Position numbers and translations under genes: made by a program. Below the pieces are notes generated by a model. That model was not told the DNA's origin and searched no databases. It saw nothing but the letters and a program-made list of their open reading frames with translations. Below are positions 32,670 through 49,353 of a stretch of DNA of 64,000 bases, one piece after another; positions within the stretch are counted from its first letter, which is position 1, and each line of letters opens with the position of its first letter. Source of the DNA: Vibrio tapetis subsp. tapetis (GTDB taxonomy: Bacteria > Pseudomonadota > Gammaproteobacteria > Enterobacterales > Vibrionaceae); assembly GCF_900233005.1 (NCBI RefSeq), contig NZ_LT960612.1, positions 1,612,001 through 1,676,000 of the forward strand, in the 5' to 3' direction.

Positions 32670-33890
32670 TTAAGGGTTCATTACTAGTTTCACACCAGCA
32701 ATGGTGTATTTCATTCCTGCTAGTGTGTCACCATCGCTCACCCATTCAGGAAACAGAGACATAGGTTTATCGATATTTCTTAAAACGTTAATATCTATGT
32801 TTCCATCTTTGCTGGTAAAGAGTGTTTTGAGTGGAACTCTTACTTGTTGCCAAGAGTTTTCAGCAAAAGAAGCTGGAAGCAGGTAGGGCTGAGATCTCCC
32901 CTTTGCAGATGATTCCATTTGAATCTGTAAGCGTTTGGTCGGGTGGCTTCCATAGCTCTCAACGTTAAGCATGAATTCCAGTACACCAGTGCTGACATAT
33001 GCAGCAATATCCCTTGCCGTACTATCATTTGGTTGCAAAATTACGCCACCGTTAGATCCGGCTGCAGGGCTTGGGTAAGAAATAGAAAAACTGTCATGCC
33101 CCCAATCGATTTGCAAGCTAGACCCATCGCTCATCCAGGTTGTAAGCTTCGTCGCCCACCCTTGGGAAGGACTGCCAATGATAAGTAGGTTTGAATCTTG
33201 TGAGCCTAAGTCTGGTTCTAGAAAGGTACTGGTATTGGTACATTCTAGAACTGATTTATCACCGTCAATGGAGTTACTAATAACTCTTATATTCCCAATA
33301 TCAGCATTAAAGTTTCCATTGGTATGTATCACAAATGGAGCCAGTGTTTGTGCAAAGTCCATATTGAAACAAGAAAGCGGTATTTTGAGAGTCTGGCTAG
33401 AGGACTTGCTTAATGCTAGTGCTGCACTGCTTAATGACACCTGAGTAGAATCTGTCCCAGAAACTTTCTGTGCAGATACATATATAGCTTGCTTAAGAGT
33501 TGGCTTCTCTAAAGAACGTAAATCAAACTGCAGCGTTGAGTTGTCCTTCTCAATGCCCATATCGACGGAGTTACCATTTGCTGATTTAGCTATCAGGCGG
33601 CCCTTATTAGAACCTGTAACTTGAAAGTTCACAGGAGGGTTCGTGTTGCTATTAAGCCCCGTCGTGCTGACGTTACCTTGTGAAGCGTTACCATTACTGT
33701 CGAGCTGCATTTCCAAATCGGTTTGGTCCACAATGGATAAAGCGTACGTACCATCACTTTGGGCGCTGTAGATCTCTTTTTTTGTTGATGTAGGGGGAGG
33801 TGATGGGTACTCATATGGATCGTCCAGACAACCATTCAAGAGGCCAAGTGATATTGCCGCAGTCAGCAGCGTCTTAGTGTAATTTTTCAT
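32670..33890 (-). CDS. Outer-membrane lipoprotein with two ExoP-like carbohydrate-binding modules
   Basis: 406 residues with a lipoprotein signal (lipobox LLNGC, Cys near residue 21). Residues about 40-215 and 225-405 look like two related beta-sandwich modules. The second one (SLQIDWGHDSFSISYPSP, ENSWQQVRVPLKTL, MKYTIAGVKLVM) and the first (LKIPLSCFNMDFAQTLAPFVI) match the C-terminal galactose-binding-like ExoP domain of marine GH3 beta-glucosidases. There is no catalytic domain. Divergent from the glucanase operon and sharing its operator region, so I infer a surface glycan-binding role comparable to SGBPs of Bacteroidetes loci. Next-best guess: a substrate-retention lipoprotein of other specificity. 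Confidence 0.65.
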   Translation of the reverse strand: MKNYTKTLLTAAISLGLLNGCLDDPYEYPSPPPTSTKKEIYSAQSDGTYALSIVDQTDLEMQLDSNGNASQGNVSTTGLNSNTNPPVNFQVTGSNKGRLIAKSANGNSVDMGIEKDNSTLQFDLRSLEKPTLKQAIYVSAQKVSGTDSTQVSLSSAALALSKSSSQTLKIPLSCFNMDFAQTLAPFVIHTNGNFNADIGNIRVISNSIDGDKSVLECTNTSTFLEPDLGSQDSNLLIIGSPSQGWATKLTTWMSDGSSLQIDWGHDSFSISYPSPAAGSNGGVILQPNDSTARDIAAYVSTGVLEFMLNVESYGSHPTKRLQIQMESSAKGRSQPYLLPASFAENSWQQVRVPLKTLFTSKDGNIDINVLRNIDKPMSLFPEWVSDGDTLAGMKYTIAGVKLVMNP

Positions 33891-33948
33891 GTCCTTTATC
33901 TCTTTATGTTAAAAAGTTATGAGAGCTTAGGTTCCATTGTATGACTGG

Positions 33949-33962
33949 TATAAACGTTTAAG
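33949..33962. promoter_or_regulatory. Operator-like palindrome before the lipoprotein gene
   Basis: TATAAACGTTTAAG, 12 of 14 matches to TTTAAACGTTTAAA, 59 bp upstream of the lipoprotein start. The centre AACG/CGTT type fits LacI-family operators. Confidence 0.6.
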
Positions 33963-34290
33963 CATTTATCTTCATCATCTCGTGCACTTTAATCAAGTTA
34001 AACTGAACGTCTTAGTGTATTAATGTGATCAAGGACTATTTCTCATTGAGATTACATATGGGTTTAGTTGTATTTATTATGTTTTAAAGGGTGGTTAGAA
34101 GTGGGCAAGGTGTTAACTTAAACGGATTATAATCGGATCGATTGACTGATTTTATTGTAAGTCATTGTTTTATATGATTTTCGTTCTTACTCTCTCTCTA
34201 TATTTCAAATTTTGTATAAAAATATATATAAGTGGATCACATAATGATGCCTATGTAGATTGACTGATAGTTCTAAATCTGAAAAACTAA

Positions 34291-34304
34291 TTTAAACGTT
34301 TAAA
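34291..34304. promoter_or_regulatory. Operator-like palindrome before the glucanase operon
   Basis: TTTAAACGTTTAAA, a perfect 14-bp palindrome 41 bp before the first gene of the operon. Its CG centre and length are typical of LacI/GalR-family operators, and a LacI-family gene lies in the same operon. Confidence 0.7.
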
Positions 34305-34344
34305 TGGTTGCATTGTGATTTTAATTAAAAGGAAACTTTGAGCA

Positions 34345-35688
34345 ATGAAAAAAATATTAACTAGCTTAACGGGAGTTATTGCACTTTCGTTAACTGCTAT
34401 AGCAGACGCTGGAGCAGTTACCATTGATTCGTTGGTACTTAGGGATCACCTATATCCAACAGATTTTCAAGCTGAATTACAAAACAACCTAAACTTTTTT
34501 ATTGACGGGGTTGGTGTTGACCCAGAAACGAAAGTTCCTTTCGACACTATTTTGGTTAAGGATGGCATCATTGAACATCGTTATTATGTGAATACATCAG
34601 AAATCGGACTGTACCTAAATATTCTTGTGGAAGCAGATAAAGGTGGGACGCGACATGCAATTGAACGTATCGCTGAAGTGCTTGATACGCTCGAAAAAGC
34701 ACCACATTGGAATGGTTTATTTTATTGGCCATACGATATTGTAGGTAAAGAGCTTAAGCCCGTAGCTGATGGCACCGTTCCGGCCGTTGATAACGGTAAC
34801 CTTGCCTTTGCTTTGGCGGGGGTTGCGGGAGCTTTCCTAAATAGTGAAGACGAACTTAAACAGAGTATTTCGAAACGAATAGAAAAAATACTCGACGCGC
34901 AAAAACCTGGGTGGGTCAAATTATACGATGAACAACGTGGACTTATGGTTGCTGGGTGGTCAACTCAGAGCGATTCAGCTTTAAGTTATTATGTAGATCG
35001 TATGGCTAATGAAAGTAGACTTGCTCCTATGTGGGCTGCGTTAATCACTGCTGATATGGGGGGCGATGCAGTTCCTGCAAGCGCTTTTAATGATATGGAA
35101 CTTTATACTAAACAGTATCAATACAAAGGTCGTACATATAACCCGATGTTAACTTGGGATGGAGCTTACTTCCAAGCTATGTTACCAGCAATCTGGCTCA
35201 ATGAAGAAGAGCTTATGCCCGACTATACGATGGTTAGAGATATGACGTTTATTCAAATGGCATATGCTGCGGAGCATAACATCCCTTTAGTTTCATCATC
35301 TGCAACGGTGGATGATGAATATGCAGCGTTTGGTGTTCCTTATTTGTCTGAGAGTAAAGTGAAATTTTCCAACGAAATTCACGACGGAAAAACAGGCACC
35401 CCACATGCGGTAGCACTTTCTTATATTGTCGATCCAGACACGGCTGTACAAGCTCTTAAATCTATAAAGAAAAATTATCCAGAAATTGAATCACCTTACG
35501 GTTGGTACGACGCACTAGATAGCGAAGGTCGCATGTCGACAAAGATCCTGTCCTTAGATCAAGGAATGTTCGTTGGTGCGTTTTTAGCTGATGAAATAAA
35601 TGCAGATGTAAAACGTTACCTTGATTCAAAAGGGTATTCTGAAGCGGTAGAAGAAATGTATCAAAGTTTCGTGCCAAACAAGGGATAA
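34345..35688 (+). CDS. Putative GH144-like endo-beta-1,2-glucanase, periplasmic
   Basis: 447 residues; AAGGAAAC 11 nt before ATG and a signal peptide to about residue 25 (IADAGA). The rest is an (alpha/alpha)-barrel of the glucoamylase-like PF10091/GH144 type: SEIGLYLNIL, APHWNGLFYWPYD, AVDNGNLAFALAG, NESRLAPMWAAL, WDGAYFQAMLPAIW, and the C-terminal LDQGMFVGAFLAD. GH144 enzymes cut beta-1,2-glucans into sophoro-oligosaccharides. First gene of an operon with a GH94 oligoglucan phosphorylase, which supports that substrate. About half identical by eye to the second copy at 36659. Exact GH family to be settled by search. Confidence 0.7.
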   Translation: MKKILTSLTGVIALSLTAIADAGAVTIDSLVLRDHLYPTDFQAELQNNLNFFIDGVGVDPETKVPFDTILVKDGIIEHRYYVNTSEIGLYLNILVEADKGGTRHAIERIAEVLDTLEKAPHWNGLFYWPYDIVGKELKPVADGTVPAVDNGNLAFALAGVAGAFLNSEDELKQSISKRIEKILDAQKPGWVKLYDEQRGLMVAGWSTQSDSALSYYVDRMANESRLAPMWAALITADMGGDAVPASAFNDMELYTKQYQYKGRTYNPMLTWDGAYFQAMLPAIWLNEEELMPDYTMVRDMTFIQMAYAAEHNIPLVSSSATVDDEYAAFGVPYLSESKVKFSNEIHDGKTGTPHAVALSYIVDPDTAVQALKSIKKNYPEIESPYGWYDALDSEGRMSTKILSLDQGMFVGAFLADEINADVKRYLDSKGYSEAVEEMYQSFVPNKG

Positions 35689-35695
35689 GAATAAG

Positions 35696-36646
35696 ATGAG
35701 ACATTATTTATTAGCAGTAGTAGTAGTAGGATTGGCACCTGTTGGAGCCGCTTTCGCAGAGAATGGAATTTGGGATGACATTGAATTAACTGGATATGGA
35801 CAGCCAGAACTCCAGTTTGAAGCGCTAGAAAAGGTCGGAGGATTTGGTGAGATCTTAGTCGCTTCGCCTACCCCCTTGGCTAAACGTAGTCGAATATTGA
35901 CGGGATTTGAATATGAAGAATACGTCTACAAAAACGCACCAAGCCAACTGTATCAATCATATATTTTTGCCGATGGGAACACCAAAGTAGCAGAAAACTG
36001 GCGAGTCGCTTATGTGCTAAAAGAGATCCATCGCTATGAAGGCGAAGATAAAACCTCGAAAGGTCAGCCGATGTTAAATCTTGAGCTGATGCCTCGCTAT
36101 GAGAAGTGGGTAAATGAAGCGTTTAATTATGCATTAGAAGTTGGTTATGAGAAAACCACGGGTCTTGAAGAAAAAACACGCTATCAAGTGACGCCTGAAG
36201 CCAATTTTACCTTCGGTAAGCATTTTGTTCACCTCAACGTAGAGATGGGCTATTGGCAAGAGGAAAACGCGAGTTTTTATGAAACCGAACCATTATATGT
36301 ATACCGATTAAATGATTGGATAAACCTTGGAGCCAAAGCTCTATATCATAAAGACAACAACGATTTTGCTTGGACTGAAAAGGCTATTAAGCCTTTAATT
36401 CAATTTCGTTTTGATAATCAAGTGTATTTGGAATTGAGATACGAGCGTGGTGAAACCGAAATTCACGATGGTTCGGGTTATGCGTATGACAATTATGCAC
36501 TTTACACTCAGATACCTGTGAACGATACCATCAGCGTTTTGGCGGATGTTGCCTATCGTGACCATCGTCAACAGAACGGTAATCAGTACACTTGGGGCGA
36601 CAAAAAGGGCGCATTTGCCAAAGTCGGTTTGATTTGGACTTTCTAG
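35696..36646 (+). CDS. OmpG-like outer-membrane porin
   Basis: 316 residues, signal peptide to about residue 21 (AAFAEN), then alternating aromatic/charged beta strands and the terminal phenylalanine motif VGLIWTF expected for outer-membrane barrels. Length and pattern fit monomeric OmpG/KdgM-class porins (14 strands in OmpG). It starts 8 bp behind the first glucanase and ends 12 bp before the second. It likely admits oligosaccharides to the periplasm; E. coli ompG likewise sits with a disaccharide phosphorylase/ABC cluster (ycj). Confidence 0.78.
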   Translation: MRHYLLAVVVVGLAPVGAAFAENGIWDDIELTGYGQPELQFEALEKVGGFGEILVASPTPLAKRSRILTGFEYEEYVYKNAPSQLYQSYIFADGNTKVAENWRVAYVLKEIHRYEGEDKTSKGQPMLNLELMPRYEKWVNEAFNYALEVGYEKTTGLEEKTRYQVTPEANFTFGKHFVHLNVEMGYWQEENASFYETEPLYVYRLNDWINLGAKALYHKDNNDFAWTEKAIKPLIQFRFDNQVYLELRYERGETEIHDGSGYAYDNYALYTQIPVNDTISVLADVAYRDHRQQNGNQYTWGDKKGAFAKVGLIWTF

Positions 36647-36658
36647 AAGGGGACAACA

Positions 36659-38011
36659 ATGATCAAGCAAATTAGTTATTTTGTTACGGGGATCTTATCC
36701 CTTAGCCTTTTAGGCTGTGTTGAGGAAACTCGAGCTACAGAAAAAATCAAAATCGACTCTAAATATTATCCGAAAGGATTTGAAACCGAATTACAGTCAA
36801 ATCTTGATTTTTTCATGGATGGTGTTGGTGTCTCTCCTTCTGTTAAGGTGCCGTATGACCATATTATTCTTGGGAGCGATGGAAATACGGTTGCAAACTA
36901 TACAAATATTACCGGTGTGGGGTTCTATCTTAACTTACTCACGGAGATGCAAAGAGCGGGCAGTAGCAGTGCTGTTCTTCGTATGGAAGAAGTGCTTAGC
37001 GTCTTAGAGTCTGCGCCTAAATGGAACGGATTGTTCTTTTGGCTCTATGGCTTTAGTGAAAATGAGTTGACCGTTTCCAATGATGGAAAAATCTCTGCAG
37101 TAGATAATGGCAATTTAGCCCTATCATTAGCTGCATTAAGTGGTGCGTATTACGACAGCAATAACGATCGACTTAAAGCGATAGCGACTCGATCTGAATC
37201 TCTGCTATCAGCACAGAAACTAGGCTGGTCTAGTTTATATGATACCAATCGAGGGTTACTGCGTGCCGGTTGGAGCAAAGATACTGGAACGTATCTTGGT
37301 TACCACATTGACCGGAAGACAAATGAAAGTCGTTTGGCCGTTATTTGGGCTGTCTTGTCGACAGAAGGCAGCGCGCAAGCCGTACCCGCGAGTGCTTTTA
37401 CCACTATGCCAATGCCTGTAGGGCGCTATAATCATGATGGGGTTTACCTTGAGCCGCTGTTAAGTTGGGACGGATCCTACTTTCAGACAATGATGCCTTC
37501 GTTATGGATTAATGAAGCTAAACTCATGCCAGATAGTCGTTACTTGGAAGCCGTTAACCAGCTCCATAAGCAGTACTCTGACGCAAACAATGGGATACCT
37601 TTTGTGTCCGCTTCTGCTACACCGAACAATGGCTACCACGCTTACGGTATTAAAGAAGTATCTGAGAGTTATTACAAATACCAAAATTCAATTTCGTCTG
37701 CAGCGGGAACTCCTCATGCATCAGCGCTTTATTATATGAGCGACCCAACTGATGCTGTGGCTCGCCTTAAAGCGATTAAAGCAGGTTATCCGATGATTGA
37801 GACGAAGGCTGGTTGGAGGGATGCAGTGGCTCCAGATGGAACCTTATCAAATAAGCTTATTGCTATTGATCAAGGGATGTTTGTTGGTGCCTTTATAGCT
37901 TCTTCTGTACAGCAAGATGTCAGTAACTATTTTGAACGTAAAGGGTGGAAAGCGTCTCTTGAGCAAATGTACGATACATTTGTTCCAACTGAATACATTA
38001 ATTATCCCTGA
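36659..38011 (+). CDS. Putative GH144-like endo-beta-1,2-glucanase, lipoprotein form
   Basis: 450 residues, paralogue of the 34345 product with the same landmarks (NGLFFWLYG, AVDNGNLALSLA, NESRLAVIWAVL, WDGSYFQTMMPSLW, IDQGMFVGAFIA). It differs at the N-terminus, which carries a lipobox (LLGC, Cys near residue 19), so it would be tethered to the outer membrane and may face outward, acting on long chains before import through the porin. Preceded by GGGGAC 6 nt before ATG. Confidence 0.7.
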   Translation: MIKQISYFVTGILSLSLLGCVEETRATEKIKIDSKYYPKGFETELQSNLDFFMDGVGVSPSVKVPYDHIILGSDGNTVANYTNITGVGFYLNLLTEMQRAGSSSAVLRMEEVLSVLESAPKWNGLFFWLYGFSENELTVSNDGKISAVDNGNLALSLAALSGAYYDSNNDRLKAIATRSESLLSAQKLGWSSLYDTNRGLLRAGWSKDTGTYLGYHIDRKTNESRLAVIWAVLSTEGSAQAVPASAFTTMPMPVGRYNHDGVYLEPLLSWDGSYFQTMMPSLWINEAKLMPDSRYLEAVNQLHKQYSDANNGIPFVSASATPNNGYHAYGIKEVSESYYKYQNSISSAAGTPHASALYYMSDPTDAVARLKAIKAGYPMIETKAGWRDAVAPDGTLSNKLIAIDQGMFVGAFIASSVQQDVSNYFERKGWKASLEQMYDTFVPTEYINYP

Positions 38012-38109
38012 GTGACTTGTTTGGGGCGTATGACTCGTATTACTGTGGCATCGCCCCCAATAGGTTCAAATTAGAGACGTTTCTGCCAAATCGCAAACAG
38101 GACAAAGTA

Positions 38110-39222
38110 ATGGCACGAGTAGTATTAGATAACATGAACAAGGTGTACGACAACGGGTTTCATGCGATCCGCGATGTCAGTTTAGAAATTGAAGATGGGG
38201 AGTTTATGGTCCTTGTAGGACCGTCAGGTTGTGCCAAATCGACCATGCTACGCCTCATTGCAGGTTTAGAGAATGTGACCAGTGGCGAGCTAAGTATCGG
38301 TGAGCGTATTTGTAATAATCTAGCTCCGAAAGATCGCGGTATAGCGATGGTTTTTCAAAATTACGCGCTTTATCCCCATATGACGGCCTATGAAAATATG
38401 GCCTTTGGTTTAGAGACAGCGAAAAAGCCTAAATCTGAAATAGAGAAACGCGTTGCTGAGGCGTCAGAGCTATTAGAGATCCAAGACCTTTTGGACCGAA
38501 AACCTAAGCAGATGTCAGGCGGCCAAAGACAAAGGGTTGCTTTAGGCCGTGCTATGGTACGTAAACCTGAAGTATTTTTGTTTGACGAGCCTCTTTCAAA
38601 CCTCGATGCGAAGTTAAGAGTTTCAATGCGTATGAGAATTACTCGTTTACACCAAGAACTCAAGTCTTTCGGTAAGCCAGCCACAATGGTTTATGTTACA
38701 CACGATCAGGTTGAAGCAATGACCATGGGGGATCGAGTTTGTATCCTTAATAAGGGACAGATTATGCAAGTAGATACTCCGATGAATGTCTACCGTAAGC
38801 CGAAAAATAAATTTGTCGCAGAATTTATAGGATCACCATCTATGAATATGTTTTCGGCAACGTTATGTCGCCATGACAATAAACTTGCGGTTTGCGTAGA
38901 AGATAAGCCCTTATTTATACCAGAAGATAAACAAAACAAGGCAGTCATGTGGCTGGACCATGCCGTTCATTTGGGTATTCGACCAGAAGATTTAAAAATC
39001 AACGATCAACCGTGCGATGGCTCTCTTGAAGCGACGGTCGTTGCGGTAGAAGAACTGGGTTCAGAGGTATTCGTGTACATGGAGGTATCTGGGGCTGAAG
39101 TGGTATGCAAGATCGATCATCAACAAGCTCTTCCTAAAGTCAGCCAGATCTGCTGGTTGAAACCGGATATGAGTAAATGTCATTTATTTGACAATAAAAC
39201 AGAACACAATATCTTTTTTTGA
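38110..39222 (+). CDS. Sugar ABC transporter ATPase (MsmK/UgpC type)
   Basis: 370 residues from ATG 38110 (AGGACAAAG upstream; the longer in-frame start at 38017 lacks family sequence). Walker A GPSGCAKSTMLR, where the usual glycine of GxGKST is Ala (GCAKST), signature LSGGQ replaced by MSGGQRQRVALGRAM, Walker B VFLFDEPLSNLDAKLR, H-loop VTHDQVEAMT, and a C-terminal TOBE/OB domain. The domain order is that of MalK-type ATPases energising CUT1 importers. Pairs with the permeases at 45034-46730. Confidence 0.9.
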   Translation: MARVVLDNMNKVYDNGFHAIRDVSLEIEDGEFMVLVGPSGCAKSTMLRLIAGLENVTSGELSIGERICNNLAPKDRGIAMVFQNYALYPHMTAYENMAFGLETAKKPKSEIEKRVAEASELLEIQDLLDRKPKQMSGGQRQRVALGRAMVRKPEVFLFDEPLSNLDAKLRVSMRMRITRLHQELKSFGKPATMVYVTHDQVEAMTMGDRVCILNKGQIMQVDTPMNVYRKPKNKFVAEFIGSPSMNMFSATLCRHDNKLAVCVEDKPLFIPEDKQNKAVMWLDHAVHLGIRPEDLKINDQPCDGSLEATVVAVEELGSEVFVYMEVSGAEVVCKIDHQQALPKVSQICWLKPDMSKCHLFDNKTEHNIFF

Positions 39223-39255
39223 TTTATGGTTTGCGACTCTGGAGTATTTTTCGCA

Positions 39256-42200
39256 ATGAAAGACTTTTTTAATTCACCGGCACATACTGTCGGTTCAACT
39301 GAACTAAGATTGGATTTTAATCAAGATTACGCATTACGTGCCGTTCATAGTAATGGACTGATGGTGTCAATGTTTGAAACCCCAACTCAACAACGGCCAT
39401 TATCAAATCTGTATTTGCGTCGTTATTTGAAAAACGGCTTTGAAGTGACGCCACTTCTTTTTTTTGGTGATTCTGTTGAAACGTTTAAACTGGACGGCGG
39501 AGCGATTGGCTGGAAAACACAAACTCAGCATGTAGAAGCCTACGTTTCATTGCATACAAATGGCAACGCCTATTTTTATGATGTCGAGTTGAGAAATACA
39601 TCCGATTTTGACCTGCAATATGATTTGATCTTTGGTCAAGATGTGGCTTTGGCTGACGAAGGTGCGGTGAAGACCAATGAAGCTTATTGTTGTCAGTACC
39701 TCGATCACCAGGTGTTTGATACGGATAGCGCGGGCTACACCGTTTGTAGTCGTCAAAATTTACCTCAGAGTACGGGGAATCCACTAATTCAGATTGGCGC
39801 TCTGTCAAGCGTCACTGGTTATAGTACTGATTGTTTTCAGTTTTTTGGTACTGAATGCAAATTCACTGGTGAAGCTCAAGCTCTTCAGAAACCTTGCTTA
39901 GATAATCAAAAATATCAATTTGAAATGGGCTATATTGCCCTTCAAACTCAAGATCGAACTTTAACTGGTGGCGAGTCACATCAGGTTACTTTCTATGGTT
40001 TGGTATTACCGGACTGTCCTGAGGCTAATGTTGAAGAACCGATTCCTCTGGAAGAGATCAAATCGATTAGAAGTGCCTCTGTACCGAGCTGGAAAAATGC
40101 TCAGGTGTTGTCACCATTAAAGGCTGAGTACCCTAAGCTAGTTAACGGAGAAGCGCTAACAGATAAAGAGATCACAGACCTATTCGGATCGATTCAGTTA
40201 TTTCCTGAGACACGTAACGGTCAGCTCCTTTCGTTTTTTGGCAATCGTAGCCAATATGTAACATTAGCTGAGAAAGAGCGTTACATGGAGCGGGCGACTG
40301 GCCATGTAATTGCTTCAGGTAATAATGTTGATTGCCAAAATCCGATAATGAGCGCTAGTCACTATATTTTCGGCGTATTTAATTCGCAATTGACGCTCGG
40401 TAACACATCGTTTAACAAACTGCTTGGAGTCACTCGTAATGCTCTGAACCAGTTTACAAACAGTGGCCAGCGTATTCATATTCGCGAAGATGGTGTACTT
40501 AAGACTTTAGCGATGCCATCTGCGTACGAAGTGGGCACAAATTATTCTCGTTGGGTATACAAATATCGGGGTGGTTATTTAGATATTCGCTCATTTAGCT
40601 CAGTTGATCACCCGATGATTCAATTGGATATCGAATTGGTTGGTCTCGATACAGCGCTTGACCTAGAAATCTCTCACCAGCTGATATTTGGCAATAACGA
40701 AGCAGAATCTGCAGTGAGCGTGCTTGCTGACGGTAATCAGTTCCATGTACATGGCGATAATGCTCTGATTGCGGCTTCAACGCCTGAGCTAGCTTTTACC
40801 GTATTAGCTTCATCCGCTTTGAGCAAATACGCTCTGGTTTGCGATAATGGTTCAGTTTCTTCGTTAGTACTAAAAGGGCGAGTCACGAATAAAGCGAGCA
40901 TTTCTTTTGGTGGCCGCATGAGTGAAGTTGATACTCGTGGTCAAACCCTAGACTTTGATTCAGAAGCGACGTCTGGCTACGATCGAATGCGTGGCCTTAC
41001 TAATCAGTTCCATTTAGATATTGCTAAGGAAAAACAAAACAGCCAAAAACTAAATCAAACGATGCATTGGTTTACACATAACGCATTAGTTCACTACGCG
41101 ACGCCACATGGTCTTGAGCAATACTCTGGTGCAGCCTGGGGAACAAGAGATGTTTCACAGGGACCTTTTGAGTTGTTCATGTCCTTGCAAAAGTTTGATA
41201 AAGCAAGAGAAGTGTTAGAAATTATTTATAGCCATCAATACCAAGAAACGGGTACTTGGCCACAGTGGTTTATGTTCGATAATTACGCTCATATTCAGCA
41301 AGAAGAAGCTCATGGAGACATTGTCGTTTGGCCATTAAAAGCATTGGCTGATTACATAGTAGCTACAGGTGACACGAGTCTTCTGGTTGAACCTCTGCCT
41401 TATACGCTAGCGCATAGTGATTTTTCTTTAAGCGAGATCAAACCCACACTGCTTGAACACGTCGAGCGTCAGATCCAGCATATTGAAGATAATCTTGTTC
41501 CTGGAACTTGGCTTTCGAGCTATGGCGACGGTGATTGGGATGACACGCTTCAACCGGCTAATCAGTCTTTGAGAGAGAACATGGTCAGTGGGTGGACGAT
41601 ACCACTCACGCTTCAAGCACTCAAAACGATGCTGAAAGCGCTACCGATAGAGCACGTTGAAATTAGAGAGCGCATTCTTACGTTGGCGACAAATATGGAG
41701 CAGGACTTTAATCGGTATCTCATCAAAGACGGTGTGGTGGCAGGGTTCATTCATTTCGATCGCGAAGAAAATGGTGAAGTACGTGATATCGAGTACCTCC
41801 TACACCCATCCGATAAGAAAACAGGCATCCAGTTCCGTTTACTTCCAGCAAGTCGATCCATTATCTCGGAAACGTTTGAACCAGAAATGGCAGCTGCTCA
41901 AATGGCCTCTATAAAGGATAAGCTGTTGTTCCCAGATGGCGTTCGTTTGATGGACCAAATGGCTGAATATAAAGCAGGCAAACAAACTTACTTCAAACGT
42001 GCTGAATTAGCTGCATGCCTAGGCCGTGAGGTTGGACTTCAATATTGTCACGCTCATATTCGATTTATCGAAGCGCTTTGCAAACTCGGTGATGCAGAAG
42101 CCGTTTATGAGAATTTATATAAAATCTTGCCTATTGGAATTGAATCTGCAGTACCTAATGCAGAGCTTCGCCAATCAAACGCTTACTTCTCAAGTTCAGA

Positions 42201-42612
42201 TGGCAAGTTTCACGATCGATATCAAGCATATCAGGGGTTCGACCTTCTTAAGCAAGGAAAAGTGAACGTGAAAGGCGGATGGCGTATTTATTCTAGTGGT
42301 CCTGGTATCTATATTAATCAACTGATCTCCAACGTTTTGGGTATTCGTTTTGAAGATGGAAACGTGCTTCTTGATCCTGTCATAGCAAAAGAAATCGGGA
42401 CGGTCTCTTTACGCTTTCAGCTAAATAACTGCCCAGTCGATATTACGATAAAGCCTGAGTCGGGAGAATTTACGCCGAAGTCGATTGAACTGAATGGTAA
42501 TGCTTTGCCTTTCACCGTCTCTTCCAATCGTTATAGAACGGGGGGAGCAGTTATTAATAAAACAGAGTTATTGCTAGATAAGGAAAGTAATCAACTGGTT
42601 ATTAGGCTCTGA
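39256..42612 (+). CDS. GH94 1,2-beta-oligoglucan phosphorylase
   Basis: 1118 residues from ATG 39256 (GGAG 11 nt upstream). No signal peptide, so cytosolic. Length and N-terminus (FNSPAHTVGSTELRLDFNQD) resemble Listeria 1,2-beta-oligoglucan phosphorylase (SOGP), far longer than cellobiose phosphorylase. The GH94 catalytic segment DGDWDDTLQPA at residues 758-768 contains the general acid, and ETGTWPQWFMFD near 672 is the usual barrel motif. It phosphorolyses sophoro-oligosaccharides to glucose 1-phosphate. Other GH94 specificities cannot be excluded from sequence alone. Confidence 0.8.
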   Translation: MKDFFNSPAHTVGSTELRLDFNQDYALRAVHSNGLMVSMFETPTQQRPLSNLYLRRYLKNGFEVTPLLFFGDSVETFKLDGGAIGWKTQTQHVEAYVSLHTNGNAYFYDVELRNTSDFDLQYDLIFGQDVALADEGAVKTNEAYCCQYLDHQVFDTDSAGYTVCSRQNLPQSTGNPLIQIGALSSVTGYSTDCFQFFGTECKFTGEAQALQKPCLDNQKYQFEMGYIALQTQDRTLTGGESHQVTFYGLVLPDCPEANVEEPIPLEEIKSIRSASVPSWKNAQVLSPLKAEYPKLVNGEALTDKEITDLFGSIQLFPETRNGQLLSFFGNRSQYVTLAEKERYMERATGHVIASGNNVDCQNPIMSASHYIFGVFNSQLTLGNTSFNKLLGVTRNALNQFTNSGQRIHIREDGVLKTLAMPSAYEVGTNYSRWVYKYRGGYLDIRSFSSVDHPMIQLDIELVGLDTALDLEISHQLIFGNNEAESAVSVLADGNQFHVHGDNALIAASTPELAFTVLASSALSKYALVCDNGSVSSLVLKGRVTNKASISFGGRMSEVDTRGQTLDFDSEATSGYDRMRGLTNQFHLDIAKEKQNSQKLNQTMHWFTHNALVHYATPHGLEQYSGAAWGTRDVSQGPFELFMSLQKFDKAREVLEIIYSHQYQETGTWPQWFMFDNYAHIQQEEAHGDIVVWPLKALADYIVATGDTSLLVEPLPYTLAHSDFSLSEIKPTLLEHVERQIQHIEDNLVPGTWLSSYGDGDWDDTLQPANQSLRENMVSGWTIPLTLQALKTMLKALPIEHVEIRERILTLATNMEQDFNRYLIKDGVVAGFIHFDREENGEVRDIEYLLHPSDKKTGIQFRLLPASRSIISETFEPEMAAAQMASIKDKLLFPDGVRLMDQMAEYKAGKQTYFKRAELAACLGREVGLQYCHAHIRFIEALCKLGDAEAVYENLYKILPIGIESAVPNAELRQSNAYFSSSDGKFHDRYQAYQGFDLLKQGKVNVKGGWRIYSSGPGIYINQLISNVLGIRFEDGNVLLDPVIAKEIGTVSLRFQLNNCPVDITIKPESGEFTPKSIELNGNALPFTVSSNRYRTGGAVINKTELLLDKESNQLVIRL
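39476..39489. promoter_or_regulatory. Operator-like palindrome inside the phosphorylase gene
   Basis: TTGAAACGTTTAAA, 13 of 14 matches to the operon operator, about 220 bp into the coding sequence. May be chance (codons VETFK) or a downstream auxiliary operator. Confidence 0.3.
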
Positions 42613-42682
42613 TAATTATTAGTTAAGAATGGAAGTTACAGAGTTCGTATGCAATTTAATACTCTCGGGCATGAGACACTGA

Positions 42683-42696
42683 TATAATCGTTTAAA
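42683..42696. promoter_or_regulatory. Operator-like site before lacI-type gene
   Basis: TATAATCGTTTAAA, 12 of 14 matches to TTTAAACGTTTAAA with the right half perfect; 70 bp before the regulator start. Suggests autoregulation from an internal promoter. Confidence 0.5.
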
Positions 42697-42765
42697 TAAG
42701 AATGAACTGTGCTCGTCATGGGCACATTGAAGGCGACAGTTGATAGTGTTTTTTGTGGGAGAAGT

Positions 42766-43752: not shown

Positions 43753-43762
43753 GGTTTCGAGT

Positions 43763-45004
43763 ATGAAAAAGTGGTTGTGTGCTTGCCTTTTGATTTTAAG
43801 TAATCAGGCATTAGCTGGAACCCGTATTGAGGTTATGTCACCAGCGGGGAATTATATGAATTTTCTGCGTCAGGAAGTTATCCCTGAATTTAATCAGCGC
43901 TTTCCTGATGTGAAAGTTGTCGTTTCAAACGATGAAAATTTAGAAACACGAATGGCCGCTGGTGATATGCCTAATTTATATGCAGGTGTATTTGGTTATC
44001 AACCCGCTAAATATGCCAAAATCGGTAAATTAGTTTATTTCGACCAATTCGAAGGCTATCAAGAATTAGTTGATAGAATTGAACCTCGTTTTATGCGTAA
44101 AAACTTTGGCCGGACGTATTACATCCCATGGAATGTCACTACGCAAATGATGCTATACAACAAGGACTTGTTCCGTGAGGCTGGTCTTGATCCCGATAAG
44201 CCACCTCGCACCTGGGAAGATTTTTTGTTTGTTGCAGAGAAAATCAGCGATTTGCCTTCGAGAGCAGATGGGAGTCCTGTTTACGGAACAGTTCTGTGGA
44301 ATGATGTGTTGTCTTCTGGTAGCTGGTATTGGGGGATGCTTGCCCAGTTATATTACAACTTTAACCAAGGGCAATATTCACTATTAAATCGTTTTGGTAC
44401 TCATCCGGTTTTTGATAAACCTGAAGCCAATATGGAAGAATTCTTAAGTACGATGCAGAAGGTGCAGAAGTATGCGCCGTTGACGATGGAAAAAAGTTTC
44501 TTCTCTCGTAATATTGGTATGTGGCCGCAGTTTGGCTTTGGTTGGAAAACCAATCTACAAGAAGCTGCGGGATATCCTATGGTGATTGGTGAAGACGTGG
44601 GTATCGCCCCTTTACCCACCTTAAATGAGGGAGACGTGCCTGTTTCTACCCTCGATGGTCGTGCATTAATGATCTTTAAAAGCAATAGTGAGCAGGAATT
44701 TCTTAGTTGGAAGTTTGTGCAATTGCTAATGGATGATGAGATTAATCATAAGGCTAATGTCACGTTAGGGCAGCTTCCTGCGTTAACGGCACTTAAAGAA
44801 CGTCCATATTATCAGAGCGCAGAAGCCAAGCCTTTCGTTGATCAACTGACCAATACAGTAATGAGTGAACCATTCTCTCAGTCTGCAGATATGGCTAATA
44901 TTATTTTACAGCAGTACTCGAAAGTCGTACTGAAGCACGAGTTAACTCCGAAGCAAGCTGTAAGTGAAGCGGCAGAGCAAGCACGTAATATTTTCAAGAA
45001 ATAA
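43763..45004 (+). CDS. ABC sugar-binding protein (family 1)
   Basis: 413 residues with a signal peptide (cleavage after QALAG near residue 18). Class-D solute-binding pattern: IPEFNQRFPDVKVVVSND, YIPWNVTTQMMLYNKDLF, EAGLDPDKPPRTWEDFL. Begins 10 bp behind lacI. Expected to bind linear oligosaccharides in the periplasm; the Listeria homologue system binds sophoro-oligosaccharides. Confidence 0.9.
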   Translation: MKKWLCACLLILSNQALAGTRIEVMSPAGNYMNFLRQEVIPEFNQRFPDVKVVVSNDENLETRMAAGDMPNLYAGVFGYQPAKYAKIGKLVYFDQFEGYQELVDRIEPRFMRKNFGRTYYIPWNVTTQMMLYNKDLFREAGLDPDKPPRTWEDFLFVAEKISDLPSRADGSPVYGTVLWNDVLSSGSWYWGMLAQLYYNFNQGQYSLLNRFGTHPVFDKPEANMEEFLSTMQKVQKYAPLTMEKSFFSRNIGMWPQFGFGWKTNLQEAAGYPMVIGEDVGIAPLPTLNEGDVPVSTLDGRALMIFKSNSEQEFLSWKFVQLLMDDEINHKANVTLGQLPALTALKERPYYQSAEAKPFVDQLTNTVMSEPFSQSADMANIILQQYSKVVLKHELTPKQAVSEAAEQARNIFKK

Positions 45005-45033
45005 ATAATAATTTTTAATTAAGTGGTTATCCT

Positions 45034-45912
45034 ATGAAAAATAAAAATATCGTTACAGGGTATGTATTTCTCGCACCTTGGATTATTTATTTTACGGTTT
45101 TTTTGCTCTATCCGTTCTTTCTTTCTTTTGAGAGTAGCTTTTTAAATGTCAATATATTAACTCCAGAAAATACTCGTTTTGTCGGTTTGGCGAACTGGGT
45201 GTCAGTAATTACAGATTTTACTTTTTGGAAATCATTATTTAATGTTTTATTTAATCAAGTGATTTTTGTTTCACTTAGTTTTGGTATTGGGTTAGGGTTA
45301 GCATTATTACTTAATGAAATAACAGCATTTGCTAGTTTTTTTCGTACAGTAATGTTTATTCCAGTAATCACATCGATAACAGTAGCAATGATCATCTTCG
45401 ATTTTATTTCTGGCCCGTCAGGCCCAATTCAGACCAGCATGCTTAGTGCTGAACTGTTGGAACAACCGGTATTTTGGAAATTTGATGAGTGGTTACCTAT
45501 GCCTGTGATTGCCGTCTTCAGTGCCTGGAAATGGTTTGGCGTTCAGATGATCATTTTCCTAGGTGGAATTGCAAGTGTTGATAAGTCGCTGTTTGAGGCT
45601 GCAAACATTGATGGTGCCTCTTGGTGGAGAAAGACCTGTAAGATTACTCTTCCGATGATCATGCCACAAATCGTATTTGTGATGACAATGAATATTATCA
45701 ATGGATTACAGATGTTCATTGAAGTGTTTATGAACTTTGATCTTAGCGGCGGCCCGTATCAGTCAGCCCTGACTCCTGTGCTCTATTTGTACCAAACGGG
45801 CTTTGAAGAAATAAAAATGGGTGAAGCTTCGACTATCGGTCTTATGTTGGCTGCGGTTATTTACTTGCTCACGATGATGCAAATGAGAATTACCACAAAA
45901 GGAGCGGACTAA
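45034..45912 (+). CDS. ABC sugar permease (MalF-like)
   Basis: 292 residues with six predicted membrane helices and the EAA loop EAANIDGASWWRKTCKITLP near residues 189-208, which docks the ATPase. Overlaps the next permease by one base (TAATG). Confidence 0.92.
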   Translation: MKNKNIVTGYVFLAPWIIYFTVFLLYPFFLSFESSFLNVNILTPENTRFVGLANWVSVITDFTFWKSLFNVLFNQVIFVSLSFGIGLGLALLLNEITAFASFFRTVMFIPVITSITVAMIIFDFISGPSGPIQTSMLSAELLEQPVFWKFDEWLPMPVIAVFSAWKWFGVQMIIFLGGIASVDKSLFEAANIDGASWWRKTCKITLPMIMPQIVFVMTMNIINGLQMFIEVFMNFDLSGGPYQSALTPVLYLYQTGFEEIKMGEASTIGLMLAAVIYLLTMMQMRITTKGAD

Positions 45913-46730
45913 TGAGTAAATTAAACAAAAATATATTGATATATGTATCGTTGATTCTTGTATCTATTATTGTGATATATCCATTCTTTTATATGGTCAT
46001 TAATTCATTCAAAACTGGCCCAGAGATAATGCACTCTCCAAATTCTTTGCCGAAAAATTGGTCATTGAAAGGGTATGTTGAGGTTTTTAATACTGTAAAT
46101 TTGGGGCGGGTTTTTTTTAATACAATTTTTATTTCGATGTCCGTAACTTTTCTTAATACTATATTTTCTGCCATGGTTGCTTTTTCGATTGTTAAAACTA
46201 ACCTGCCTGGTCGTGAGTTTTGGTTGAAGGTTATTTTAGGCTCAATGATGGTTCCAGCGATATTGTTTACCATTCCAACATACATGATGATGTATGAATG
46301 GGATTGGATAAACACGTATCGCGTATTAATTATCCCTGGCTCAATCAGTGCTTATAATATTTTCCTGTTAGTCCAATTTATGAAGCAGATTGATAATGCA
46401 TATCTAGAAGCTGCTCGTATTGATGGCGCAAGTGAGATGAGGATCTTTTTCCGTATAGTTCTACCGATGCTCCGTCCAGCATTGGCTACTGTTGGTATTC
46501 TCACGTTCATGGGAGCTTGGAATGATTTTATGGGGCCATTACTCTACGTACGCGATGAATCCTTAATGACATTGCAATTAGCGCTATATAACTTCAAAAC
46601 TGAGGTTCCGGGAACCAACTTAGAGCAAATGTGGGCGATGACGACGATGATCGCAGTTCCTGTCGTTCTTGTATTTTTCTGTTTGCAGAAGAATTTTATT
46701 AAAGCCTTTACTGGTGTAGGAGTTAAGTAA
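45912..46730 (+). CDS. ABC sugar permease (MalG-like)
   Basis: 272 residues, six predicted helices, EAA loop EAARIDGASEMRIFFRIVLP near residues 161-180. Start and stop overlap with both neighbours by one base, so translation is coupled. Confidence 0.92.
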   Translation: MSKLNKNILIYVSLILVSIIVIYPFFYMVINSFKTGPEIMHSPNSLPKNWSLKGYVEVFNTVNLGRVFFNTIFISMSVTFLNTIFSAMVAFSIVKTNLPGREFWLKVILGSMMVPAILFTIPTYMMMYEWDWINTYRVLIIPGSISAYNIFLLVQFMKQIDNAYLEAARIDGASEMRIFFRIVLPMLRPALATVGILTFMGAWNDFMGPLLYVRDESLMTLQLALYNFKTEVPGTNLEQMWAMTTMIAVPVVLVFFCLQKNFIKAFTGVGVK

Positions 46731-47212
46731 TGTCAGGACGAATAAAATGGCTCGTATTTTTGTTGGTTATAGCTACTGCGTACGGAGTAGCTTGGCATAA
46801 GGCTTATGTTTTGTCGTCCGACTATTACGATTTTGCACAAGAACAATTCCAACAAGGAAATTATATTACAGCCATTAAAGGGAAGAATAAGCTCGAGATG
46901 CGCCGCAGTGATACGTATCTTGGTGGGTACCAACAAGTTGTTGAAACATGGGAACATATGGTTTTGGGTCTTAGACCCGACTTTTACTATTTAGCTAAAC
47001 AAAAAGTAGACGAAAGCTTATCTAAATTAAGTAGCGATGAACTTTTATTGCTAATTGAAACTTACGTAGAACTCGACTTACGTTATGTGCCCGAAGCCGC
47101 TCTTAGGTTGAAAAACTTGGCTTCAGCTCAGGGAAACCAACTATTGTACTCTGAAATGGATGAATTTCTTATAGAGGCATTCCCTGAATTTAGTCAGGAG
47201 GGAGACCAATGA
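46730..47212 (+). CDS. Membrane-anchored protein of unknown function, coupled to the permease
   Basis: 160 residues: one N-terminal membrane segment (residues 6-24) and then a soluble helical part outside (SSDYYDFAQEQFQQGNY, LIETYVELDLRYVPEAAL), which has the look of a short TPR-like helix array. One-base overlap with the permease stop and four-base overlap with the beta-glucosidase start, so it is an integral member of the operon. No family recognised. Could scaffold the importer or hold the binding protein; that is a guess. Confidence 0.7.
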   Translation: MSGRIKWLVFLLVIATAYGVAWHKAYVLSSDYYDFAQEQFQQGNYITAIKGKNKLEMRRSDTYLGGYQQVVETWEHMVLGLRPDFYYLAKQKVDESLSKLSSDELLLLIETYVELDLRYVPEAALRLKNLASAQGNQLLYSEMDEFLIEAFPEFSQEGDQ

Positions 47213-49353
47213 CATCGTATCAAAGCCCTGATCTAAGTATTGAGCAACGAAGTGCCAATCTGTTAGAGATGATGACCGTTGCTGAGAAGGTTGGGCAACT
47301 GTGCCAATCACCGATGCTAGAGTACAGACATAATAGAGATGAGTATTTAGCAGCCGTAAAAACAGGAAGGGTTGGTTCTCGTATTTTAGCCGACACAGCT
47401 TGGGCTGGTAACACCCCGGGGGAAACAGTTGATCCATTACAACTTAATGAAATACAAAGAGCGGCAGTAGAGGAAAGTAGATTAGGTATCCCGATCATTT
47501 TTGCTCGAGATGTAATTTATGGGCAGAAAACGGTTCTTCCGATTCCACTTGCTCAAGCCTGCTCTTGGAATCCTAAATTGGTTGAACAAGCTTATTCAGG
47601 AATTGCAAGAGAGGCGGCATCTCTTGGAATAAACTGGACGTTCGCGCCTATGTTAGACATTGTTCGAGATCCTCGCTGGGGACGTGTTATTGAAAGTAGT
47701 GGTGAAGATCCATTTGTAGCTAGTACTCTCGCGCAGGCGGTAGTAAAGGGTTTTCAAGGGGATGATCCGTCTAAGCCAGATAGACTGTTAGCGTGTGCTA
47801 AGCATTTTATTGGCTATGGTGCCGCTGAAGGTGGCCGAGACTATGATACGACTGAGATAACGGATAATACCCTGCATAACGTGTATCTCCCCTCTTTTAA
47901 AGCGGCAGTTGATGCAGGTGTGGCGACGTTGATGTCTGGTTTTAATGATCTTGGCGGTACTCCAGTGACCGCGTGCCGCGCTTTAATTCGAGATTGGCTA
48001 AAAGAGCAGCAGAAGTTTGATGGGGTCGTCGTGAGTGATTGGGGTTCGATTTCAGATTTAGCATATTTCGGTGTTGCAAACGATGAATCCGAAGCTGCGA
48101 AGCAGGCGTTGCTGGCTGGAGTTGATATAGCAATGACGAATAAGGCGTATGAGGGGGTGCTTGATGCACTCGTTATAGATGACCCGAAATTGATGAAATA
48201 CCTTGATGATGCTGTATTACGAGTGCTGAAAGCTAAGTTTCGAGCAGGCTTGTTCGAATCGCCATACGTAGATCCGAAGTTACATCAGACTGTGCTCGGT
48301 CATCCGCAGCATCAACAATGGGCTCGTGAGTTGGCTCAACAATCAATGGTATTACTAAAGAATCAAAGTCAAATACTGCCATTACCCAATGAAGGCCTGA
48401 AAATTGCTGTAATTGGCCCACACGCTCATAGTCAACGACAGCACTTAGGTTCATGGTGTTTGGATGGCGACAGTCGGGATGTAGTTTCAATCTACGAAGG
48501 TATTAAGCTGCATGGCGGGATCAATACAATAATGACTGAAGATTCGACGTTCAGCGATGAGATGGTTGAATGTGCACATCTTGCAGATGTTGTGGTTTTA
48601 TGCGTCGGAGAAAGTCACAGACGTACCGGAGAAGCAAGGAATATTGCTGAATTGACGCTACCTGCTGGTCAGGAGGATCTGATACATGCAGTTGGCCGCA
48701 CGGGTAAACCATTAATAGTTGTACAGTGTACGGGGCGACCTGTACCGTCACCTGCAACTGAGCAACATGCTAATGCACTGCTGTACGCGTGGCAAAGCGG
48801 TACTGAAACTGGCAGGGTTGTTGCTGATTTACTGTTTGGTGATGTATCACCTAGTGGAAAATTAACAATGACGGTTCCACGAACTACGGGTCAAATCCCT
48901 ATGTATTATGCTCGCAAACCTGTCGGTAAGATGCGCGACTTCAGAGAGTATCAAGCATATAAGGACTTTGATTGTAGTCCATTATATCCGTTTGGTTTTG
49001 GATTAACTTATAGTCAGTTTCATTATGATGACTTAAGTGCCGCTAAACAAAATGATGGCAGTTTACGTGTTGTTGTTCGTTTGACGAACACCGGATCAGT
49101 GCAAGCATCTGAGGTGGTGCAATGTTATTTGGCCCACTCACATGCATCAACTACTCGACCAAGTCGAGAACTCAAGGCGTTTGCTCGTGTTTGTCTGTCT
49201 GCAGGCGAGAATGAAAAAGTGGTAATGAATATTTCGGCAGAGCAACTCATTCACTATGGGGCCGATAAGAAATGGCGACTTGAATCCGGGAAGATTACAT
49301 TGTTCGTAGGCAGCGATTCAACCTGCGGTTTATCGACCTCTGTGGATGTATAA
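47209..49353 (+). CDS. GH3 beta-glucosidase, cytosolic
   Basis: 714 residues without signal peptide. GH3 N-terminal barrel (ARDVIYGQKTVLPIP, RDPRWGRVIESSGEDPF), nucleophile D277 in VVVSDWGS, second domain with IAVIGPHA and acid/base region RTGEARNIAELTLPAGQ, and a C-terminal fibronectin III-like domain (LYPFGFGLTYSQF onwards). Size equals the Listeria sophorose-preferring GH3 enzyme encoded with SOGP. Would cleave sophorose left by the phosphorylase. Last gene of the operon. I see no strong terminator behind it. Confidence 0.9.
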   Translation: MTSYQSPDLSIEQRSANLLEMMTVAEKVGQLCQSPMLEYRHNRDEYLAAVKTGRVGSRILADTAWAGNTPGETVDPLQLNEIQRAAVEESRLGIPIIFARDVIYGQKTVLPIPLAQACSWNPKLVEQAYSGIAREAASLGINWTFAPMLDIVRDPRWGRVIESSGEDPFVASTLAQAVVKGFQGDDPSKPDRLLACAKHFIGYGAAEGGRDYDTTEITDNTLHNVYLPSFKAAVDAGVATLMSGFNDLGGTPVTACRALIRDWLKEQQKFDGVVVSDWGSISDLAYFGVANDESEAAKQALLAGVDIAMTNKAYEGVLDALVIDDPKLMKYLDDAVLRVLKAKFRAGLFESPYVDPKLHQTVLGHPQHQQWARELAQQSMVLLKNQSQILPLPNEGLKIAVIGPHAHSQRQHLGSWCLDGDSRDVVSIYEGIKLHGGINTIMTEDSTFSDEMVECAHLADVVVLCVGESHRRTGEARNIAELTLPAGQEDLIHAVGRTGKPLIVVQCTGRPVPSPATEQHANALLYAWQSGTETGRVVADLLFGDVSPSGKLTMTVPRTTGQIPMYYARKPVGKMRDFREYQAYKDFDCSPLYPFGFGLTYSQFHYDDLSAAKQNDGSLRVVVRLTNTGSVQASEVVQCYLAHSHASTTRPSRELKAFARVCLSAGENEKVVMNISAEQLIHYGADKKWRLESGKITLFVGSDSTCGLSTSVDV

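What the first reader, a model, noticed from the sequence alone, without database searches (positions are those of the whole stretch)
32670..49353. Beta-1,2-glucan (sophoro-oligosaccharide) utilisation locus in a Vibrio
Seen: eleven + strand genes from 34345 to 49353 with little spacing, plus one divergent lipoprotein gene, which together offer a full path from polymer to glucose: outer-membrane lipoprotein, two secreted glucanase candidates, OmpG-like porin, CUT1 ABC importer, GH94 phosphorylase, LacI regulator, GH3 glucosidase. Known: in Listeria innocua a GH94 1,2-beta-oligoglucan phosphorylase, a GH3 sophorose glucosidase and an ABC importer form one cluster, and GH144 enzymes cut beta-1,2-glucan. 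Inference: this bacterium scavenges cyclic or osmoregulated beta-1,2-glucans. A Gram-negative version with a porin and a surface lipoprotein, lacking a TonB receptor, would be a distinct design.
Basis: partly seen in the sequence, partly recalled or inferred. Interest (0 to 1): 0.9.

Follow-up and report, generated by a model that had tools for sequence, protein, structure and literature searches.

The report
Vibrio locus for eating beta-1,2-glucan
A marine-type Vibrio carries a complete set of genes, from outer surface to cell interior, that should let it eat beta-1,2-glucan, a sugar polymer made by other bacteria; the enzymes are of known types, while the porin and a small membrane protein belong to undescribed families.

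Summary
In detail: a divergent lipoprotein gene and eleven packed + strand genes (32670-49353). The reading is largely right and can be sharpened. The two secreted enzymes are GH192, a beta-1,2-glucanase family created in 2025, not GH144/162/189; one is soluble, one has a lipobox. [quoted passage not shown] The porin models as a 14-strand barrel closest to the cyclodextrin porin CymA. Conserved LacI-type operator words lie before both divergent genes. In 296 related genomes GH192 occurs in 19, all among the 21 with SOGP. The host lacks OpgG, so the glucan is probably foreign. Porin, CUT1 importer and GH94 together are a known design (recalled: chitin, cyclodextrin). Weak points: the GH3's key Arg is Lys; the binding protein resembles Lin1841 only weakly. 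New variant of a known kind.

The parts
32670..33890 (-). LP: predicted outer-membrane lipoprotein (lipobox LNGC, Cys21) with an Exop_C domain and a CBM30-like stretch below cut-off, no catalytic domain seen; candidate glycan-binding protein
   Evidence: its homologue lies divergently beside the GH192 gene in several loci, including E. elysicola
33949..33962 (.). LacI-type operator candidate (2 mismatches to TTTAAACGTTTAAA), about 60 bases before the LP start
34291..34304 (.). LacI-type operator candidate, perfect palindrome TTTAAACGTTTAAA, about 40 bases before the SGLa start; the only perfect copy in the genome
34345..35688 (+). SGLa: GH192 endo-beta-1,2-glucanase, ordinary signal peptide by inspection, no lipobox (soluble periplasmic or secreted)
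   Evidence: 599 bits to 8xuj/EeSGL1; catalytic Asp and Glu kept
35696..36646 (+). POR: 14-stranded outer-membrane barrel of the CymA/OmpG kind, no Pfam family; residues 1-60 (signal plus N-terminus) of low model confidence; C-terminal Phe
36659..38011 (+). SGLb: second GH192 paralogue, lipobox LLGC (Cys20), so probably anchored in the outer membrane
   Evidence: 406 bits to 8xuj
38110..39222 (+). CUT1 importer ATPase (MalK/UgpC type, TOBE domains); the longest ORF starts at 38017 (TTG)
39256..42612 (+). SOGP: GH94 1,2-beta-oligoglucan phosphorylase, cytoplasmic (no signal)
   Evidence: PF21958, PF21250, PF21270; 714.7 bits to 5h3z; residues
42766..43752 (+). LacI-family regulator (longest ORF from 42709); likely reader of the AAACGTTT words
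43763..45004 (+). CUT1 solute-binding protein; only weakly like the sophoro-oligosaccharide binder Lin1841 (5ysb, E 4.6e-4)
45034..45912 (+). CUT1 permease 1
45912..46730 (+). CUT1 permease 2
46730..47212 (+). DUF160: undescribed 160-aa protein; one long N-terminal helix (membrane span by inspection) running into a small helical repeat, probably periplasmic; nearest fold YfgM (weak)
47209..49353 (+). GH3 beta-glucosidase without signal, related to BglX, JMB19063 and Lin1840; expected to split sophorose

Best explanation
A LacI-controlled locus for using foreign beta-1,2-glucan. Outside or at the outer membrane, the lipoprotein LP binds the glucan and the lipoprotein glucanase SGLb cuts it. The CymA/OmpG-like porin POR lets sophoro-oligosaccharides, possibly also small cyclic glucans, into the periplasm, where the soluble GH192 enzyme SGLa trims them. 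The binding protein and the CUT1 importer (two permeases, MalK-type ATPase, probably helped by the membrane-anchored DUF160) bring them into the cytoplasm. There SOGP releases glucose 1-phosphate down to sophorose, and the GH3 enzyme splits sophorose into glucose. The LacI protein acts on both divergent genes through TTTAAACGTTTAAA-like operators until an inducer appears. Shown by sequence: gene content, GH192 and SOGP membership, residue conservation, operator-word conservation, synteny and co-occurrence. Inferred: compartments, direction of flow, porin substrate, DUF160's role, regulator-operator match, inducer.
Against: The Lin1840 residue Arg572, important for sophorose, aligns to Lys574 here and is Lys in 33 of 33 rows (37 loci given, 4 without such a GH3; some genomes appear twice); R572K in Lin1840 raised Km for sophorose tenfold. 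The loop alignment has a four-residue gap, so the match is not certain. The binding protein is not a close Lin1841 relative (rank 48 of 51 hits). Porin identity with CymA is only 14 percent; a shared fold shows no substrate. 2 of the 21 SOGP genomes have no GH192 match, 2 have no POR match, and POR occurs in 3 genomes without SOGP. No AAACGTTT word lies directly before the ATPase gene in the window itself, unlike most relatives. Surface exposure of the lipoproteins is untested, and signal peptides were judged by eye and a lipobox pattern only.
Confidence: 0.88

Rival explanations
1. Broader beta-glucan (laminarin-type) scavenging locus: the GH3 and importer serve beta-1,3 as well as beta-1,2 oligosaccharides.
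For: Lin1840, a homologue of this GH3, does not distinguish laminaribiose from sophorose; the GH3's Arg572 equivalent is Lys; the binding protein's substrate is unknown.
Against: [quoted passage not shown] the phosphorylase is an SOGP; none of the 12 locus proteins matches a beta-1,3-glucanase family in Pfam.
Confidence: 0.06
2. Turnover of the cell's own periplasmic beta-1,2-glucan rather than foreign glucan.
For: Soluble glucanase, importer and phosphorylase could recycle an endogenous glucan.
Against: OpgG (PF04349) has no match in this genome, in any of the 21 SOGP genomes and in 290 of 296 genomes of the family; a porin and lipoprotein parts point outward. Other glucan synthases were not searched for.
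Confidence: 0.03
3. The intended substrate is a cyclic beta-1,2-glucan entering whole through a CymA-like porin, opened in the periplasm by SGLa.
For: POR's nearest fold is the cyclodextrin porin CymA, and it has a low-confidence N-terminal segment after the signal, as CymA has a constricting N-terminal segment (PMC11186346 abstract).
Confidence: 0.15

Closest known systems
Listeria innocua lin1839-lin1841 cluster (SOGP, GH3, Sop-binding protein)
   Same: SOGP, GH3 and an importer binding protein in one cluster (PMC12369401 passages); same chemistry inside the cell
   Different: Gram-positive. The Listeria cluster itself was not fetched; in the 63 Firmicutes SOGP loci, matches at E 1e-3 were 0 for DUF160, 0 for POR and 0 for LP, while 7 had a distant SGL-clan match of 86 bits or more at 24-27 percent. 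The binding protein here is only weakly like Lin1841
Characterised GH192 enzymes EeSGL1 (Endozoicomonas elysicola) and PgSGL1/PgSGL2 (Photobacterium gaetbulicola), PMC12102758
   Same: Same enzyme family and catalytic acids; the E. elysicola GH192 gene lies beside LP and POR homologues about 24 kb from an SOGP core; a genome whose GH192 lengths fit PgSGL1 and PgSGL2 has the PgSGL1-like gene about 45 kb from SOGP
   Different: Here two paralogues, one soluble and one lipoprotein, flank the porin directly inside a run with the whole pathway; no sulfatase is near
Klebsiella oxytoca cym (cyclodextrin) system with porin CymA
   Same: 14-strand sugar porin feeding a CUT1 importer (system recalled; fold tested)
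   Different: Other polymer, enzymes and regulator (recalled); 14 percent identity in the porin
Vibrio chitin uptake (chitoporin, ABC importer, GH94 chitobiose phosphorylase; recalled)
   Same: Porin plus ABC importer plus GH94 phosphorylase in the same genus
   Different: Chitoporin is a trimer (listing of PMC10406626) and a weaker match to the POR model than CymA (Foldseek E 9e-7 against 5e-10); other GH94 subgroup
YfgM of E. coli (PpiD-YfgM)
   Same: One N-terminal membrane helix and a periplasmic TPR domain (recalled), as in the DUF160 model
   Different: Foldseek E 0.14 only, TM 0.34; DUF160 was found only in genomes with this sugar locus

Membership tests
GH192 beta-1,2-glucanase (SGLa, SGLb) | Sequence relationship to EeSGL1 (8xuj) | tested here: met
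   599 and 406 bits over nearly full length; next 8wy1 (GH189) at 67.5 and 24.9 bits
GH192 beta-1,2-glucanase (SGLa, SGLb) | Catalytic Glu (E221) and Asp (D149) of EeSGL1 | tested here: met
   AVDN and NESR motifs in 9 of 9 aligned proteins; SGLb against 8xuj, with a chain offset of one assumed; residues from PMC12102758
GH192 beta-1,2-glucanase (SGLa, SGLb) | Activity on beta-1,2-glucan only | not testable with these tools
   needs purified enzyme
SOGP (GH94) | Extra N-terminal domain and GH94 catalytic domain | tested here: met
   SOGP_N 241.9 bits, SOGP_2nd 181.8, SOGP_4th 42.6, GH94 40.8
SOGP (GH94) | Substrate-binding residues at subsites -1, +1, +2 of LpSOGP | tested here: met
   16 of 17 examined kept, G623 is Ser (the last three read from the match line, the chain row being cut there)
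Sophorose beta-glucosidase (Lin1840-type GH3) | Trp271 and Tyr583 at subsite +1 | tested here: met
   Trp and Tyr581 at the JMB19063-equivalent positions
Sophorose beta-glucosidase (Lin1840-type GH3) | Arg572 at subsite +1 | tested here: not met
   Lys574, and Lys in 33 of 33 relatives' rows; hence described as 'expected to split sophorose', not filed as a Lin1840-type enzyme
CymA/OmpG 14-strand porin fold | Barrel of 14 strands | tested here: met
CUT1 sugar importer | SBP, two permeases, MalK-type ATPase | tested here: met
Sophoro-oligosaccharide binding protein (Lin1841) | Close sequence relationship to 5ysb | tested here: inconclusive
   E 4.6e-4 over part of the chain, 47 other sequences score higher
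TonB/SusCD polysaccharide utilisation locus | TonB-dependent receptor with SusD-like lipoprotein | tested here: not met
   none among the 12 locus proteins scanned

The most novel reading that the evidence does not exclude
The window is the compact form of a gammaproteobacterial beta-1,2-glucan system whose extended form eats a still unknown sulfated (or otherwise esterified) beta-1,2-glucan. In Photobacterium, Endozoicomonas and some Vibrio the same core (SOGP, LacI, importer, DUF160, mostly GH3) is bordered by FGly-type sulfatases and often by a large lipoprotein that in one genome has the exact length of PgSGL4, with GH192 genes farther off. PgSGL4 is the clan member for which no substrate was found; it may fail on plain glucan because its substrate is decorated. 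DUF160 would be a dedicated accessory of this importer, a new kind of part for a CUT1 system.
Probability: 0.2. Interest if true: 0.75.

Novelty: new variant of a known kind. Interest (0 to 1): 0.45.

Why it matters
Beta-1,2-glucans are made by many bacteria as osmoregulated or cyclic glucans (recalled), but who recycles them in the sea is little described in the papers I could search. This locus gives a complete, testable route in a Vibrio, puts the new GH192 family in a physiological setting, and offers two undescribed protein families (the porin and DUF160) whose occurrence follows the pathway. The extended loci with sulfatases give a concrete lead to the missing substrate of the Group 4 (PgSGL4) proteins.

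Tried and rejected
GH144, GH162 and GH189 for the two 450-residue proteins: EeSGL1 (GH192) scores far higher than the only other clan members hit. Cellobiose or laminaribiose phosphorylase: rejected. An OpgG-loss correlation: not informative, since OpgG is rare in the family anyway (6 of 296). One shared operator word for all loci: TTTAAACGTTTAAA with up to one mismatch was found in only 3 of 17 named loci; the shorter AAACGTTT is what recurs. The copy inside SOGP (39476) is kept in several relatives but overlaps Thr-Phe codons, so it may be coding constraint. Promoter scan gave fewer hits than shuffles and terminator scan as many. No inverted repeats of 18 bases or more within 60 bases. Sulfatases in the window's own genome: three over the cut-off (a fourth below it), the only one on the same contig about 1.48 Mb away along the contig, or about 0.35 Mb if the contig is circular, so the window locus has none. 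The idea that sulfatases simply replace GH192 was dropped on re-check: in five of the six sulfatase-bearing named loci the same genome has GH192 about 16-53 kb from SOGP. Literature: searches listed no paper that I could recognise from title, abstract start or passages as describing such a locus in Vibrio, its porin, or sulfatases with beta-1,2-glucanases; only six papers were opened, one search used a term that could not match 'beta-1,2-glucan' as printed, and supplements could not be read, so this is weak. In one search the reading of the c38 ORF used a wrong frame and was discarded. The table length given for EeSGL1 (438) fits none of the ATG starts of the E. elysicola ORF (449, 446, 433); that this ORF is EeSGL1 rests on its being the only GH192 match in that genome and on the identical visible stretch near the N-terminus. 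The species of the window was not determined; the nearest named protein relatives are Vibrio mediterranei.
Full report
What is there. One search confirms one divergent gene (32670-33890, -) and eleven + strand genes (34345-49353). Ten locus proteins and the two permeases give the contents: lipoprotein LP, glucanase SGLa, porin POR, glucanase SGLb, MalK-type ATPase, GH94, LacI, binding protein, two permeases, an unknown 160-residue protein (DUF160) and GH3. Eight flanking ORFs scanned (among them a GNAT acetyltransferase, a 204-residue phage-integrase-family ORF, a DoxX protein and kinases) show no link to sugar use.

The enzymes. SGLa and SGLb match 8xuj with 599 and 406 bits. PMC12102758 (abstract, passages, section 4 part 1 of 3 and section 20 seen) states that 8XUJ is EeSGL1 of Endozoicomonas elysicola, a Group 1 = GH192 enzyme, endolytic and specific for beta-1,2-glucan among the polysaccharides tested. 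Its catalytic Glu221 and Asp149 are kept in both window proteins and in 9 of 9 aligned proteins in all. SGLb has a lipobox, SGLa does not, so I infer one anchored and one soluble enzyme; the three SGLb relatives aligned also have TGC or MGC near the N-terminus.

The GH94 protein carries the SOGP-specific domains and scores 714.7 bits to LpSOGP (5h3z) and 28.8 or less to cellobiose phosphorylases. I compared 17 residues named in PMC5309861 (passages) by eye with the alignment, allowing for a chain offset of one: 16 are kept and Gly623 is Ser. The last three (Tyr1004, Ser1005, Ser1006) were read from the match line because the chain row is cut there. The GH3 has no signal, keeps the Trp and Tyr of Lin1840's subsite +1, but has Lys574 where Lin1840 has Arg572 (PMC4757417 passages; alignment to JMB19063). 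Lys is found in 33 of 33 relatives' rows, all 60 percent identical or more (37 loci given, 4 without such a GH3, several genomes seen twice). So sophorose is the expected substrate by context, not by a full residue match.

Regulation. The LP-SGLa intergenic region has TTTAAACGTTTAAA at 34291, the only perfect copy in the genome, and a second site at 33949. Within two mismatches the window holds 6 sites against 0.9 expected; three of the six lie elsewhere (31030, 57183, and 39476 inside SOGP), one before the LacI gene (42683). In relatives AAACGTTT lies 29-71 bases before the ATPase gene in 14 of 17 named loci, and between LP and SGLa in the loci that have that pair. Around the E. elysicola GH192 gene it occurs 8 times in 19.9 kb against 0.34 expected: five of them 38-146 bases before LP, POR or GH192 ORFs, one 103 bases before a sulfatase-family ORF, one inside a POR ORF, one elsewhere. 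That this LacI protein binds these words is inferred.

Relatives. In one even sample of 296 genomes of the window's family (Vibrionaceae by inference) SOGP_N is found in 21, GH192 in 19, all within the 21, DUF160 in 20, all within the 21 (the missing one, G146, has its SOGP on a 9.7 kb contig), POR in 22, 19 within the 21. Fisher tests ignore kinship. Of the 21 loci fetched, 18 have the full eight-gene core in one order; one is cut by its contig, one lacks the GH3 beside DUF160, and one (G287) is decayed throughout. A scan of one genome per species gave 460 relatives, of which the best 80 were kept: 17 are gammaproteobacterial, including Yersinia similis, Proteus vulgaris and Endozoicomonas, and 63 are Firmicutes. 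DUF160 is in 16 of those 17 (the other, L058, is a 9.7 kb contig) and in 0 of 63.

Tie to experiment. E. elysicola has one GH192 match, hence taken as EeSGL1. It has a divergent LP homologue directly upstream and three POR homologues nearby, about 24 kb from an SOGP core with DUF160. The length printed for EeSGL1 (438) fits no ATG start of this ORF, which I cannot explain. The PgSGL4-like gene is then next to the core, the PgSGL1-like gene about 45 kb from SOGP and the PgSGL2-like gene on another contig.

Extended loci. Of the 17 gammaproteobacterial loci, 8 have GH192 within 10 kb and no sulfatase-family match; 6 have sulfatase-family matches and no GH192 within 10 kb; 3 have neither, two of these being short contigs. 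Five of the six sulfatase loci lie in genomes with GH192 about 16-53 kb from SOGP; the sixth, V. inusitatus, was not checked. So these are larger loci that hold both. The ten sulfatase-family ORFs printed carry C-x-P-S-R, the motif of FGly enzymes (recalled). In 6 of 63 Firmicutes loci, all Paenibacillus, a 40-42 percent relative lies beside SOGP. This is a lead to a decorated beta-1,2-glucan; FGly enzymes can also be phosphodiesterases (recalled), so phosphoglycerol or phosphoethanolamine esters are as possible as sulfate.

DUF160. The model (pLDDT 91.7, 19 sequences) is one long N-terminal helix running into seven short helices. Foldseek's best match is YfgM in the PpiD-YfgM complex, E 0.14, and Pfam's best a TPR family below cut-off. 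It sits between permease and GH3 in the complete gammaproteobacterial loci seen. One second copy (G083, L140) lies away from SOGP but beside a 68 percent relative of the binding protein and a broken permease pair: it stays with the importer, not with the enzymes. I infer an accessory of this importer; nothing here shows what it does.

Source of the glucan. OpgG has no match in this genome, in the 21 SOGP genomes and in all but 6 of the 296, so the glucan is probably foreign; linear, cyclic or decorated cannot be told.

Verdict. The pieces are of known kinds; the arrangement is a new variant, with two undescribed protein families tied to it. On re-check I changed the sulfatase reading from 'replacing GH192' to 'added in larger loci'; the odds of the novel reading were left as they were.

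Noticed in passing
46730-47212: DUF160, a 160-aa membrane-anchored, YfgM-like protein with no Pfam family, found in 20 of 21 SOGP genomes and 0 of 275 others in the family sample.
   Followed up: yes
L036, L056, L059-L062, L065, L130, L137: Extended loci with the same core plus FGly-type sulfatases, and in several a second GH3 and PgSGL4-like or c38 proteins; seven sulfatase-motif ORFs in the G121 stretches read.
   Followed up: partly
L069, L088, L100, L101, L110, L114: Sulfatase-family relative (40-42 percent) beside SOGP in six Paenibacillus loci.
   Followed up: no
L139:10559-11998: The GH192 ORF whose ATG gives the printed PgSGL2 length (454) extends upstream with alternative starts (TTG, GTG) to a lipoprotein-like signal ending LGGC; the annotated start may be too late and PgSGL2 may be a lipoprotein.
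   Followed up: partly
L048 (G287): A Vibrio genome in which the genes of this locus are in pieces with stops: the pathway is being lost.
   Followed up: no
L140:9308-11653: Second DUF160 copy in G083 beside a binding-protein gene and a broken permease pair, without SOGP: a decayed duplicate of the importer part.
   Followed up: partly
L053: Vibrio sp. CAU 1672 has a second LP-SGLa set downstream of the GH3 gene.
   Followed up: no
30940-31554: A 204-residue phage-integrase-family ORF lies just outside the locus; possible remnant of a mobile element.
   Followed up: no
39476-39489: Operator-like word inside the SOGP coding region, kept in several relatives.
   Followed up: partly
L063, L064: Yersinia similis and Proteus vulgaris carry the core with a divergent SGLa-POR pair.
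   Followed up: partly
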